A stretch of 31,147 nt of DNA, from IMG/VR virus record IMGVR_UViG_3300042890_000260, positions 1-31,147 of that record; one strand, given 5' to 3'. Position 1 is the stretch's first letter. The number at the start of each line of letters is the position of its first letter. Shown in pieces: positions 3,104-7,328 of this stretch. A model generated the notes under the pieces. It ran no database searches and was not told the DNA's origin. It saw only the letters and a list, made by a program, of their open reading frames with translations. Origin of the DNA: a virus. A program made the position numbers and the translations under genes.

Positions 3104-3365
3104 ATTTCTTTACATGAACTTCGTTGTTCTTTTCAAGTTGATCTATTAATGAAGGATAAATGCGTTTATAATATTCGTGCATCTTATCCCAAGCAGTGTC
3201 AACTACTTTGCCTTCAATAACACACTTTTCTACTTTCTTCTTTTGAAAGTCTAGAATAACATTACATGTCTGTACATCACTCAATTTTACTTTCTTAGAA
3301 ACTGCTACCTGTTCATCAATTTGTCCTCCGGGTTTACGGAAGAATGTAATCAATAGATATCTCAT
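3102..3365 (-). CDS. small conserved-looking protein next to the clamp loader, unknown function
   Basis: 87 residues. It starts with hydrophobic MRYLLITFF, then RKPGGQIDEQVAVSKKVK and a helix-like charged C-terminus. Its ATG overlaps the gp44 stop in ATGA (3365-3362), implying translational coupling. In T4 the gene after 44 is 62, the other clamp-loader subunit, but gp62 is about twice this length and I see no convincing similarity, so I do not call it gp62. Its last codons lie in the terminator palindrome. Function unknown. Confidence 0.8.
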   Translation of the reverse strand: MRYLLITFFRKPGGQIDEQVAVSKKVKLSDVQTCNVILDFQKKKVEKCVIEGKVVDTAWDKMHEYYKRIYPSLIDQLEKNNEVHVKK

Positions 3366-4285
3366 GATGTTAACTCCACTAGTGTTGCCGCTAGTGAAAT
3401 CTCAGGGATACCGACTAGAGGCAAGTTTGCAAGACCATTACGAATGACAATAACGCTTGCATCTTTCTTTTCTTGTGAATTGCCCCACAAGTCAATATTG
3501 TCATACATCCACTTGTATGTATCTTCAATACGTGTTGGATACATAGCAATGTATTGCATCAATTGTTGACGACCTTCAAGAATCTTACCTTTCTTGAACA
3601 GGGTAGTAGCTTCAATTAACAAATCATGTTCACCGGAGCCTTGCGATTGAGCCGGCAATAGTTTGCCACTATTACTGTTGACTTGTAATTGATTCAGACA
3701 CTTACGTAGATCGGGGTATGTACCACGAACATATGTATCAAGTGTATCTAAATCGAATTCTATACCCTCAGTCACAAGAACAGTCGCACCACGTGCAGTA
3801 AATTCTGTCATATCTGGCTTAGCGATATGGAACTCATGGCATCTGCTCTTAAGTGCTGGGATAATTTTGTACTGATAGTTGCAAGTCAATATATAACGCA
3901 CAGTTTGATGATATGCTTCCATATCATTACGCAATGCAGCCTGTGCTGGCTGAGTCAAATAGTCAGCTTCATCAAGCAATACAATCTTAAAAGTACCAAA
4001 CGGCATCGTTTGAACGAATCCGTTAATCTTATCACGCAGGTTATCGATACCGTTTTCACGTGATGCATTGATTTCCATTACATCGTAATCTTCTATACCG
4101 AGTTCTTTGATTAGAACCTTCGCTAGTGTAGTCTTACCTGTGCCGGCATCACCACTGAACAATAGATGAGGGATTGATCCGTCTTTGATCCATTGTTTAA
4201 CTTGCTCTTTTTGTCTGTCATCTACGAATACATATTCTGTTACGCTTTTCGGACGATACTTTTCTACCCACAATTGATTTTTCAT
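3362..4285 (-). CDS. 44: sliding-clamp loader ATPase subunit (T4 gp44 / RFC-small type)
   Basis: 307 residues, close to T4 gp44 (319). It opens with WVEKYRPKSVTEYV, the RFC-box signature of clamp loaders. Walker A is GDAGTGKT at 45-52, Walker B LLDEADYL at 103-110, sensor 1 TCN at 134-136 and the SRC arginine-finger motif at 147-149. The family loads the sliding clamp (gp45) on primer-template DNA with ATP; in T4 the clamp also activates late transcription. It overlaps the 87-aa gene downstream by 4 nt, and its ATG directly follows the stop of the 96-aa gene (TAAATG). The clamp itself is not in the window. Confidence 0.96.
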   Translation of the reverse strand: MKNQLWVEKYRPKSVTEYVFVDDRQKEQVKQWIKDGSIPHLLFSGDAGTGKTTLAKVLIKELGIEDYDVMEINASRENGIDNLRDKINGFVQTMPFGTFKIVLLDEADYLTQPAQAALRNDMEAYHQTVRYILTCNYQYKIIPALKSRCHEFHIAKPDMTEFTARGATVLVTEGIEFDLDTLDTYVRGTYPDLRKCLNQLQVNSNSGKLLPAQSQGSGEHDLLIEATTLFKKGKILEGRQQLMQYIAMYPTRIEDTYKWMYDNIDLWGNSQEKKDASVIVIRNGLANLPLVGIPEISLAATLVELTS

Positions 4286-5080: not shown

Positions 5081-5467
5081 TTAGTACACCTTGTCGCTCA
5101 TTGTTTCATCTTCCATCGGCTCATCCGATATCAGTAGTATATCATTAGGATCGACTTTACGCAACGTCAATTTGCCCTCTGGTGTTTCTACTGTGATACC
5201 GCGGGTCCAACGTCCGTGACTGATAAGAATATATTTTCCAATTTGTAGTTCCGGGTCGTTAACATCAGGACCTAGCCCATAAATCTTTGCCCAACGTGGA
5301 CGAATACCAGAACTTTTCTTGTCATCGTCCATTAGAATAATACCACCTTGTGTGATACGTTGGTCAAACTTCATATCAGTAACAATGATATGGTTATGAA
5401 AGAACTTTAGTTTGTCTACTTTTGTAGGGCTAAACGCAGGTTTACTGTATGCGCTTAAGTCACTCAT
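5081..5467 (-). CDS. GroES-like co-chaperonin (T4 gp31-type role)
   Basis: 128 residues. KLKFFHNHIIVTDMKFDQRITQGGIIL has the layout of the first strands and mobile loop of a Cpn10 protein, ending in the conserved GGIIL. Then come the domain core RPRWAKIYGLGPDV, the GKYILISHGRWTRGI region, and a C-terminal strand with LRKVDPNDILLI. In T4, gp31 replaces host GroES to fold the major capsid protein inside GroEL; the same role is inferred here. Its ATG overlaps the stop of the preceding gene in ATGA (5467-5464). With the J-domain protein it gives this phage cofactors for both host chaperone machines. Confidence 0.86.
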   Translation of the reverse strand: MSDLSAYSKPAFSPTKVDKLKFFHNHIIVTDMKFDQRITQGGIILMDDDKKSSGIRPRWAKIYGLGPDVNDPELQIGKYILISHGRWTRGITVETPEGKLTLRKVDPNDILLISDEPMEDETMSDKVY

Positions 5468-5958
5468 TTCTTAGCTTTCGGTAAGTTAGATTCCATTGCC
5501 TTGATTTGTTCAACCAATTCATCATCATCTAGTTCACGATCCAAATCTAGTTCATCTTGAGTCAACTGTTCTTCAACGACTTCTTCAACTATTTTTGGTT
5601 GGACTACAGGGGCTTGCTGTACTACAGGTTCCGGTAATATAACATCATCAACCTCATCAATTCGTTGATTGACGGCAGACCTAGTAGGTGCAGGAGTAGT
5701 TACAGGTTTTTGCGGAACCGAATCATTTCCTACCCTTTTAGGTTTTTGAGCCACTGGTTGTGCAGACCTATTGCCTACTGTTTTGCTGTATGCTTCATTA
5801 ACCTTACTTGTTGCAGGTTTTATAACTCGACCAAACGCATCAATGGTGTCACCACGTGCGTTTACTTTCATGTTGCCCACGGCCCTAGTCTTCTCATTCC
5901 TAGATGCTAGAACACTCATGTCAACTACTTTACCTAATGCTGTGCGATATTTTGCCAT
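5464..5958 (-). CDS. hypothetical protein with basic head and acidic tail, unknown function
   Basis: 164 residues in two parts. Residues 1-65 look conserved (MAKYRTALGKVVDMSVLASR, then RAVGNMKVNARGDTIDAFGR), are basic and contain a short sheet-like core. Residues 66-164 are low-complexity P, V and Q, ending very acidic (LDLDRELDDDELVEQIKAME). AGGAG precedes the ATG by about eight bases, giving strong initiation. A late-type GATAAATA (6016-6009) lies 50 nt upstream inside the DnaE-like gene. It overlaps the GroES-like gene by 4 nt. I do not recognise the family; a head-assembly or transcription role is only a guess from promoter and neighbour. Confidence 0.85.
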   Translation of the reverse strand: MAKYRTALGKVVDMSVLASRNEKTRAVGNMKVNARGDTIDAFGRVIKPATSKVNEAYSKTVGNRSAQPVAQKPKRVGNDSVPQKPVTTPAPTRSAVNQRIDEVDDVILPEPVVQQAPVVQPKIVEEVVEEQLTQDELDLDRELDDDELVEQIKAMESNLPKAKK

Positions 5959-5967
5959 TTTTTTCTC

Positions 5968-6489
5968 CTATTTTAAAAACTCATCTATTGACAAGTCATA
6001 ATATAAACTATTTATCCTATGTATACCGATTAAAAATAATACAAAGCTGGATACAGAACTACCACGACCTACTCCCCAAACAATGTTATTCTCTCTCATT
6101 GTATCTACTAGGTATTTGATATACACTAGTAATGGGAACATTTCACGTTCTTGAAACATCAATAGTTCTTGCCCGACTCGTTGAAGTTCTTCATCAGTTT
6201 GACACAAATCTAAAACATACTGTGCTATGTCAAAGTCTTTGTACGCTTCAGGGATTTTCCAGTTATCTTGTAGTGAGTTGTCAAATTCTGTGACTGACAT
6301 TGACGGGTCAGTATATGTAATAAATTTGGGTACGTTAGTTGTATCTATAATGTCAAACAAAGGGATATCTTTATCCACAACCATGTGTCTCATGGTTCGT
6401 TCCGGATCAGACAACAGCAAATCGCATATGTCTGATTCTGAATAAATTTGTTGACCGTACTTATCTACTCTCATCAACATATGATACAC
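5968..6489 (-). CDS. stand-alone fragment related to the DNA polymerase III alpha (DnaE) palm region
   Basis: 173 residues from GTG at 6489; ATGs at 6480 and 6474 are possible starts and none has a clear ribosome-binding site. Residues 75-173 align in order with bacterial DnaE just before its active site: a helix (EELQRVGQELLMFQEREMF), then WGVGRGSSVSSFVLFLIGIH and YDLSIDEFLK, matching DnaE's GPGRGS..GSL...L.I and FDLLFERFLNP. The protein stops exactly where DnaE continues into its catalytic PDFDVDF aspartates, so it cannot polymerise alone. It is a regulator, nucleotide or polymerase binder, or a relic. It lies in the same frame as the 198-aa gene upstream, separated by one TGA and three codons. 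Confidence 0.82.
   Translation of the reverse strand: MYHMLMRVDKYGQQIYSESDICDLLLSDPERTMRHMVVDKDIPLFDIIDTTNVPKFITYTDPSMSVTEFDNSLQDNWKIPEAYKDFDIAQYVLDLCQTDEELQRVGQELLMFQEREMFPLLVYIKYLVDTMRENNIVWGVGRGSSVSSFVLFLIGIHRINSLYYDLSIDEFLK
6009..6016 (-). promoter_or_regulatory. late-promoter-like GATAAATA inside the DnaE-like gene
   Basis: Minus strand GATAAATAGTT, 50 nt before the ATG at 5958. It would start transcripts for the 164-aa gene and the GroES-like gene independent of upstream genes. It lies in coding sequence, so it may be chance. Confidence 0.35.
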
Positions 6490-6508
6490 GATTACGCATC
6501 ATTTGTCA
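6478..6508 (-). promoter_or_regulatory. possible sigma70-like promoter before the DnaE-like gene
   Basis: Minus strand TTGACA at the end of the 198-aa gene, 17 nt, TATCAT (5 of 6), overlapping the first codons of the DnaE-like frame. The next in-frame ATG (6474) is six bases after the -10. TTGACA also encodes the C-terminal VDK, so chance is possible. The interval given is approximate. Confidence 0.3.
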
Positions 6509-7095
6509 ACTGGAATGTATAAGACTTCGCCCTTATCTTTTTTGCAATCTTCTTTCCAACCCAATCCTAAACTATTCCAATCTAGTTGTTCTTTTCTCAA
6601 ATCAACTACTTTTTCTCGTTTGGTTTTCTTTATAAGAATGCTTGTATTTGGGCTACTATCTGTCCACCACACATTTGACAGATGTTTAAATTCTGCTTCT
6701 TCTTCCTGAGACACATAAAAACATACATCATCGCAGATATCAGAACGAATCTTAATTTCAGTTAAAAACAAATGCCCATCTGTGATAGAGTTAATCTTAC
6801 TAATCATAACAGCGGCAACAACCTGATCGTAGGGTTCGTCTGGTAATGGACATATCCTGATTCCAGTCTTCCCATAAGCTTCCATAGCTTTAGTATCGTT
6901 TACATCAACGAACACACAACTATCAAAGCAAGAGTCGAATAGATACTTGATTCTATCCATAGCAATGTTTTGTTCACGTATGCTTTCAGTAGTAACATCC
7001 ATAAACAATTCTAGTTCATAGTTGTTTATAATGAAGTTTTCTTCATAGTGAATCGCGGCTTGCAGTGGGAATTTTTTAGAGATTCTGGTATTCAT
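6499..7095 (-). CDS. hypothetical protein, unknown function
   Basis: 198 residues, mixed alpha/beta, soluble. The first half carries NNYELELFMDVTTESIREQN and a Cys/Asp-rich stretch (LFDSCFDSCVFVDVND); the second half has strand-like FLTEIKIRSD and a charged tail. Its ATG overlaps the 78-aa gene's stop in ATGA (7095-7092). It ends in TGA, after which the same frame stays open through three codons into the DnaE-like gene. The pair may be coupled, or joined by rare readthrough. No family is recognised. Confidence 0.83.
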   Translation of the reverse strand: MNTRISKKFPLQAAIHYEENFIINNYELELFMDVTTESIREQNIAMDRIKYLFDSCFDSCVFVDVNDTKAMEAYGKTGIRICPLPDEPYDQVVAAVMISKINSITDGHLFLTEIKIRSDICDDVCFYVSQEEEAEFKHLSNVWWTDSSPNTSILIKKTKREKVVDLRKEQLDWNSLGLGWKEDCKKDKGEVLYIPVDK

Positions 7096-7328
7096 TTTGC
7101 GTCTTTTTCAATACTGATTTTTGTATTGATTTTTTGTTTACCCATCATATCATCCATCTTTTTGGAGTAGGCTTCTCTGTAGCTTTCTACTGCCATGTTT
7201 AATTGATGGATTAGTGCCCCGTTGCCTGTTCTATAGGCAAACGTTAGTTTGGTCATAAGTCCTGAGATAGTTGTTTGCAACTCATCTAGGGTCTTATCTG
7301 AAAGGTCATTAATAAAAGGATGTTTCAT
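7092..7328 (-). CDS. small helical phage protein, unknown function
   Basis: 78 residues, almost wholly helical: NDLSDKTLDELQTTISGLMT, then a Tyr- and Gln-bearing helix (RTGNGALIHQLNMAVESYRE) and a lysine-rich end. The heptad-like spacing suggests a short coiled coil or helical hairpin. The start is the ATG at 7328, directly after AATAAATACTTAGG; the AGG touches the ATG, too close for an ordinary ribosome-binding site, so a leaderless message is possible. It overlaps the next gene by ATGA. Function unknown. Confidence 0.82.
   Translation of the reverse strand: MKHPFINDLSDKTLDELQTTISGLMTKLTFAYRTGNGALIHQLNMAVESYREAYSKKMDDMMGKQKINTKISIEKDAK

What the first reader, a model, noticed from the sequence alone, without database searches (positions are those of the whole stretch)
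5968..6489. Stand-alone DnaE palm fragment that ends just before the catalytic aspartates
The last 100 residues align in order with C-family DNA polymerase up to GRGS and the FLxP-like stop, but the protein ends where PDFDVDF should follow. T4-like phages replicate with a B-family polymerase, so a C-family fragment is unexpected. It could compete with or bind host Pol III, bind nucleotide or pyrophosphate, or be a relic with a kept fold.
Basis: partly seen in the sequence, partly recalled or inferred. Interest (0 to 1): 0.6.

Follow-up and report, generated by a model that had tools for sequence, protein, structure and literature searches.

The report
Half of a split phage DnaE
This small phage gene makes one half of a stripped-down bacterial-type DNA polymerase whose other half, carrying the missing catalytic aspartates, is encoded elsewhere in related giant-phage genomes; this two-piece enzyme was predicted in print in 2021, but I found no report that it has been tested.

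Summary
ORF 5968-6489 (-) matches the DnaE palm (PF07733, 2e-10) up to GRGS and the "FL" end and stops before PDFDVDF. It is not a truncation or relic: 158 of 159 relatives stop within three residues of the same point, GRGS is invariant and dN/dS is about 0.08.

The missing aspartates are in another gene. Related genomes encode a ~190-215 aa partner that starts at (P)DIDIDF and keeps every position examined: D401/D403/D405, K553, D555 and steric-gate H760 (E. coli numbers). Predicted models of the two proteins tile C-family polymerases end to end, E. coli alpha 279-393 and 397-791, with the thumb and much of the fingers deleted. All 58 phage records with the N-half also carry the C-half. A B-family polymerase was found in all eight genomes tested. 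The window is too short to hold its partner.

Iyer et al. 2021 already proposed a split minimal Pol III alpha in these phages, so this is a new member of a known, untested kind. New details here: exact break point, charge reversal at R390 (E in 59/60), a DexA-like exonuclease gene overlapping the C-half gene in the window's clade, and a 141-kb phage carrying both.

The parts
5968..6489 (-). N-half of a split minimal C-family (DnaE-like) polymerase: residues about 79-173 are the first part of the palm with GRGS; residues 1-78 are a phage-specific extension of unknown fold
   Evidence: PF07733 2.1e-10; phrog_11127 2e-41; AF2 model pLDDT 88.8 aligned to E. coli alpha 279-393, best Z 12.6 to M. 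tuberculosis DnaE1 307-413
6058..6069 (-). GRGS motif (residues 141-144), predicted dNTP triphosphate-binding loop
   Evidence: 60 of 60 sequences in alignment A3; aligns with E. coli 361-364
5980..5982 (-). E170, at the position of E. coli R390; acidic in all relatives
   Evidence: E 59/60, D 1/60; alignment of EFL with ERFL
5464..5958 (-). Downstream conserved neighbour of unknown function (phrog_14844), 164 aa
   Evidence: Same place in 158 of 159 N-half loci, median gap 10 bp
5081..5467 (-). GroES-like / head-morphogenesis protein
   Evidence: phrog_931 5.7e-14; downstream in 154 of 159 N-half loci
3362..4285 (-). T4 gp44-like sliding clamp loader large subunit
   Evidence: phrog_168 8e-71; downstream in at least 107 of 159 loci, many of which are cut short
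6499..7095 (-). Upstream neighbour, 198 aa, unknown function
   Evidence: Homologue directly upstream in 99 of 159 loci; no family hit

Best explanation
The gene encodes the N-terminal subunit of a two-protein, minimal C-family DNA polymerase. SHOWN: the subunit is the first ~95 residues of the DnaE palm including GRGS, plus a ~78-residue phage-specific extension. Related phages encode, on the same strand elsewhere in the genome, a second ~190-215 aa protein that begins at the DxDxD motif and holds D401, D403, D405, K553, D555, a reduced fingers part and the steric-gate histidine H760 (E. coli numbers). The break falls in the same 2-4 residue gap against every template; the thumb, PHP domain and much of the fingers are gone. 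Both halves are under strong purifying selection and co-occur in essentially every adequate genome. INFERRED: the two subunits bind each other and rebuild the palm active site, with GRGS of this subunit holding the triphosphate of the incoming nucleotide opposite the two metals held by the partner's aspartates. INFERRED: with no thumb it is a short-stretch polymerase (gap filling, repair or lagging-strand finishing) beside the B-family replicase, possibly helped by a DexA-like 3'-5' exonuclease encoded directly upstream of the C-half in the window's own clade.
For: N-half identity. Fixed end point in 158/159 loci. One PF07733 match per genome in eight 288-490 kb genomes, always this fragment, with no PHP domain and a B-family polymerase in all eight. 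C-half found in Atu_ph07 (starts MKNIPDIDIDF) and 121Q; phrog_11778 'DNA polymerase'. All 58 phage records with the N-half have the C-half; the C-half-first outliers Stenotrophomonas CM1 and the 141-kb Alishewanella Slicko01 have the N-half too. Same strand in 37 of 37 genomes tabulated. AF2 models pLDDT 88.8 and 91.6; VIA-align: N-half = E. coli 279-393, Mtb 307-413, Taq 293-455, PolC 825-965; C-half = E. coli 397-791, Mtb 416-818, Taq 458-848, PolC 967-1312; best Z 12.6 and 9.5, best non-polymerase Z 3.4 for the C-half and none for the N-half. Catalytic positions invariant in 58/58 C-halves and GRGS in 60/60 N-halves. dN/dS medians 0.08 and 0.10. Exonuclease gene (PF16473, phrog_255) overlaps the C-half start by 4 bp in 26 loci. 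The same split was inferred independently by Iyer et al. 2021, PMC7824862.
Against: No complex was predicted or measured; the two models were folded separately. Sequence similarity of the C-half to DnaE is weak on its own (Pfam fingers E 0.02-0.05; hhalign E 0.004 to E. coli and 5e-5 to a phage polymerase), so its assignment rests on motif order and fold. E. coli R390 is replaced by an invariant acid. Loss of the thumb makes processive synthesis doubtful. Two incomplete IMG/VR contigs (G004, G009) have an N-half and no C-half; in G004 the expected place lies at or beyond the contig end. The window itself, 31 kb, contains no C-half.
Confidence: 0.83

Rival explanations
1. The two halves assemble, but the product is not a template-directed DNA polymerase: it is another nucleotidyltransferase (for example template-independent or end-modifying) or an inactive scaffold that kept the fold.
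For: No thumb, shortened fingers, and the R390 position is E or D in all 60 N-halves, whereas the contiguous phage polymerase L168 keeps R there.
Against: D401/D403/D405/D555, K553 and the steric-gate H760 are all invariant; H760 discriminates deoxyribose in E. coli (PMC8485763), which points to dNTP use. A DexA-like exonuclease gene lies next to the C-half in one clade.
Confidence: 0.25
2. Stand-alone decoy or inhibitor of host Pol III alpha.
For: Palm-like sequence; host DnaE is present in the infected cell.
Against: The fragment lacks the PHP, clamp-binding and C-terminal regions where alpha contacts its partners (general knowledge; PHP binding of epsilon in PMC3919608). It tracks a phage-encoded complementary half in every adequate genome, and its strongest conservation is at the active-site face, GxGRGS.
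Confidence: 0.06
3. A decaying relic of a full-length DnaE or a sequencing/assembly truncation.
For: None beyond its small size; the CBB authors called the homologue truncated (PMC5259590).
Against: Identical end point in 158/159 loci, dN/dS about 0.08, conserved gene neighbourhood in 154-158 of 159 loci.
Confidence: 0.01
4. A structural or assembly role unrelated to nucleotides, given its place between virion genes and a GroES-like gene.
For: Neighbours include tail, structural and GroES-like genes.
Against: Clamp-loader gene is part of the same conserved block; 121Q gp56 and gp16 are not among that record's genes named 'structural protein', though that label is only weak evidence; catalytic residues are invariant.
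Confidence: 0.05

Closest known systems
Split phage-specific minimal DNA polymerase III alpha of group 2.2 jumbo phages (Iyer et al. 2021, PMC7824862); PHROGs 11127 (N-half) and 11778 (C-half)
   Same: Same N-half family (phrog_11127), same split into an N-terminal NTP-binding and a C-terminal Mg2+/template-binding protein, same company of a B-family polymerase in relatives.
   Different: Window copy comes from an uncultured relative (closest cultured-phage N-half about 40% identical). Exact break point, thumb deletion, R390-to-acid change, exonuclease coupling and a sub-200-kb carrier are details measured here that I did not see in the passages I read of that paper.
Bacterial DnaE / PolC (C-family polymerases)
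   Same: Palm fold with GRGS; with the partner, all catalytic aspartates, K553 and H760.
   Different: Two polypeptides of about 170 and 200 aa instead of 900-1400; no PHP, no thumb (27 residues instead of 106 between D405 and H511), 32 instead of 121 residues between the fingers RP motif and H760; no OB or C-terminal domain.
DnaE genes of Enterococcus phage EF1 and Lactobacillus phage Maenad, interrupted near the same site
   Same: Reading frame broken at the PD-x-D-x-D site; an HNH endonuclease gene is adjacent or between.
   Different: Halves sit next to each other and are near full size; probably intron-interrupted genes rather than permanent subunits (inference; Rfam found no known intron).
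Cyanobacterial split DnaE with trans-splicing inteins
   Same: DnaE encoded in two genes.
   Different: Neither phage half carries extra sequence at the junction that could be an intein: N-halves end at EFLK and C-halves start about five residues before DIDID, so no splicing is expected and the product should stay a heterodimer.

Membership tests
Split minimal phage Pol III alpha (Iyer et al. 2021) | Stand-alone N-terminal palm unit of phrog_11127 type | tested here: met
   phrog_11127 E 2.1e-41 over residues 8-173; end point as in 158/159 relatives
Split minimal phage Pol III alpha (Iyer et al. 2021) | Separate C-terminal unit with the catalytic aspartates in the same genome | tested here: inconclusive
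   Not in the 31-kb window; found in relatives, e.g. G001 with an N-half 67% identical to the window's. It lies 41-51 kb upstream in four IMG/VR relatives, while the window has only 25 kb upstream
Split minimal phage Pol III alpha (Iyer et al. 2021) | B-family polymerase also encoded | tested here: inconclusive
   Present in all 8 related genomes searched; the window is a fragment and none was seen in it
Split minimal phage Pol III alpha (Iyer et al. 2021) | The two units bind and form an active polymerase | not testable with these tools
   Needs protein; models were folded separately
Bacterial DnaE, as a single protein | Palm with GRGS | tested here: met
   PF07733; VIA-align Z 10.3-12.6 to DnaE chains
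Bacterial DnaE, as a single protein | Catalytic D401, D403, D555 in the same chain | tested here: not met
   Protein ends before D401; they are in the separate partner
Bacterial DnaE, as a single protein | N-terminal PHP domain | tested here: not met
   No PHP Pfam match in this protein and none in 8 related genomes
Bacterial DnaE, as a single protein | R390 in the ERFL motif | tested here: not met
   E170 here; E 59/60, D 1/60

The most novel reading that the evidence does not exclude
A split C-family enzyme of only about 365 residues in total, the smallest of its kind known to me, that has been re-tooled: thumb lost and the R390 position turned invariantly acidic, so that it works as a specialised gap-filling or non-canonical nucleotidyltransferase paired with a DexA-like exonuclease.
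Probability: 0.3. Interest if true: 0.65.

Novelty: new member of a known kind. Interest (0 to 1): 0.42.

Why it matters
A pared-down DnaE built from two proteins would show the least that a C-family active site needs, and it sits in phages that already own a B-family replicase, so its job is an open question. Iyer et al. suggested such forms resemble ancestral polymerases. The exact complementarity at the junction, the invariant catalytic set and the pairing with an exonuclease gene make the prediction easy to test with two small proteins.

Tried and rejected
Relic or truncation: rejected by the constant end point, dN/dS and synteny. Full-length DnaE elsewhere in the genomes: PF07733 gives one match per genome, and PF17657 (fingers) gave only sub-threshold hits in two genomes, which turned out to be the C-half. 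PHP domain elsewhere: none. Intein or trans-splicing: no extra sequence at either junction. Fusion (Rosetta-stone) evidence: no locus held the two halves in one ORF; the contiguous L168 polymerase is a different, larger type. Search of PDB sequences with the 58-row C-half profile gave nothing, so fold comparison was needed; Foldseek alone gave weak E-values (0.04 and 0.002 at best), with C-family polymerases as the top eight in both. Rfam found no known intron at the EF1 and Maenad junctions. Literature search on a role for R390 gave no paper; a search for split or minimal DNA polymerase III / DnaE returned mostly intein papers.

Full report
What is there. The window is 31 kb of a T4-related phage (tail sheath, tail tube, head-closure, endolysin and gp44-like clamp-loader genes). 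The ORF at 5968-6489 on the minus strand encodes 173 aa. Pfam PF07733 matches residues 99-172 (E 2.1e-10), PHROG family 11127 matches the whole protein (E 2e-41), and curated DnaE models agree. The match runs through GRGS to the position of E. coli L392 and stops; D401 and D403 are absent.

Not a relic. I collected relatives from IMG/VR and cultured phages. In 158 of 159 loci (105 distinct proteins overall) the ORF ends 33-35 residues after the first G of GRGS. The exception, L168, is an unrelated-sized 858-aa contiguous phage polymerase. Within 60 divergent members (A3) the invariant residues include G139, G141, R142, G143 and S144. Pairwise dN/dS has a median of 0.08. The gene order is fixed: a small unknown protein (phrog_14844 type) follows in 158 of 159 loci, a GroES-like gene in 154, and the gp44-like clamp loader in at least 107, many loci being cut short.

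Where the missing part is. Eight related genomes of 288-490 kb each hold exactly one PF07733 match, this fragment, no PHP domain, and a B-family polymerase. A fingers profile gave two sub-threshold hits. The ORFs under them are 191 aa in Atu_ph07, starting MKNIPDIDIDF, and 212 aa in 121Q. They are phrog_11778, 'DNA polymerase'. They carry in order DxDxD, H-x-x-G, K-x-D-x-L, an IRP motif and KSH, the same order as in DnaE. In 58 divergent members the positions of D401, D403, D405, K553, D555 and H760 are invariant. Published work names D401, D403 and D555 as the metal-binding residues of the whole C family, D405 as invariant in DnaE (PMC3919608), and H760 as the steric gate (PMC8485763). So the fragment 'ends just before the catalytic aspartates' because the next gene product begins with them.

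Co-occurrence. Every one of the 58 phage records with the N-half also has the C-half (my comparison of the lists). Of the C-half records outside that list, Stenotrophomonas phage CM1 and Alishewanella phage Slicko01, a closed 141-kb genome, turned out to have a divergent N-half; Klebsiella W12-3 is a 110-kb record of a ~350-kb phage type and shows none. The halves lie on the same strand in all 37 genomes tabulated, usually with the C-half 29-51 kb upstream. Two IMG/VR contigs have an N-half only: G009 (235 kb) and G004, in which the expected place coincides with the contig end. In the window the C-half would lie past the right-hand end.

Structure. AlphaFold2 models of the N-half (pLDDT 88.8) and C-half (91.6) were compared with the PDB. 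For the N-half all nine chains with Z of 2 or more are C-family polymerases (Z up to 12.6); residues 79-173 cover E. coli alpha 279-393, M. tuberculosis 307-413, Taq 293-455 and PolC 825-965. For the C-half the ten best entries are C-family polymerases (best Z 9.5, rmsd 3.9-4.0 A over about 195 residues; next entry Z 3.4); residues 1-200 cover E. coli 397-791, M. tuberculosis 416-818, Taq 458-848 and PolC 967-1312. In each template the two models leave a gap of only one to three residues. From motif spacing, 106 residues between D405 and H511 in E. coli become 27, which removes the thumb, and 121 between the fingers RP motif and H760 become 32.

Two features bearing on function. First, E. coli R390 (in ERFL) is replaced by E170 in the window and by E or D in all 60 N-halves; L168 keeps R. 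I found no paper on this residue in the library; that it lies by the active site follows from its place next to D401 in sequence, and what the change does is unknown. Second, in the window's clade a DexA-type 3'-5' exonuclease gene (PF16473, phrog_255) lies upstream of the C-half in 46 of 105 loci held (some duplicated) and overlaps its start by four bases in 26. That suggests, but does not show, a polymerase-exonuclease partnership.

Mechanism. Most likely the two proteins bind and rebuild one palm active site, this protein supplying the triphosphate-binding loop and the partner the metals, primer and sugar contacts. Without a thumb, short synthesis (gap filling, repair) is more plausible than processive replication. 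Shown: identity, break point, catalytic conservation, co-occurrence, selection. Inferred: binding, catalysis and role.

Prior work and novelty. Iyer et al. [quoted passage not shown] The CBB and Atu_ph07 papers had noted the fragment as a truncated or ordinary Pol III alpha. The window's gene is therefore a new member of a known, still untested kind.

Possible origin (inference). In Enterococcus phage EF1 and Lactobacillus phage Maenad, larger DnaE genes are interrupted close to the same PD-x-D-x-D site, with HNH endonuclease genes adjacent. The site may be a recurrent target of mobile elements, one route to a permanent split.

Noticed in passing
L168:1357-5577: A phage contig with a C-family polymerase in three adjacent genes: a PHP-like protein (264 aa), a DnaQ-type exonuclease (212 aa) and a PHP-less palm-to-OB core (858 aa); a second, different way of splitting DnaE.
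   Followed up: partly
L280:4484-7843 (Enterococcus phage EF1); L281:3550-8398 (Lactobacillus phage Maenad): DnaE genes interrupted near the catalytic PD-x-D-x-D site with HNH endonuclease genes adjacent; no Rfam intron match.
   Followed up: partly
L199:2444-3579 and 25 other C-half loci: DexA-like 3'-5' exonuclease gene overlaps the start of the C-half gene by four bases.
   Followed up: partly
L268:5968-6579 and L270:1486-1998 (Alishewanella phage Slicko01, 141 kb closed genome): Both halves in a phage under the 200-kb jumbo limit, with a highly diverged N-half.
   Followed up: yes
window 5464-5958 (-): phrog_14844-type protein of unknown function with a conserved N-terminus (MAKYRTALGKVVDM) directly downstream of the N-half in 158 of 159 loci.
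   Followed up: partly
L114:2074-2454 (-): phrog_11637-type unknown gene lying opposite to, and usually overlapping, the 3' end of the C-half gene; opposite strand in all 97 matches counted.
   Followed up: no
window 7092-7328 (-): Small 78-aa protein upstream of the N-half in 150 of 159 loci; no Pfam or PHROG match.
   Followed up: no
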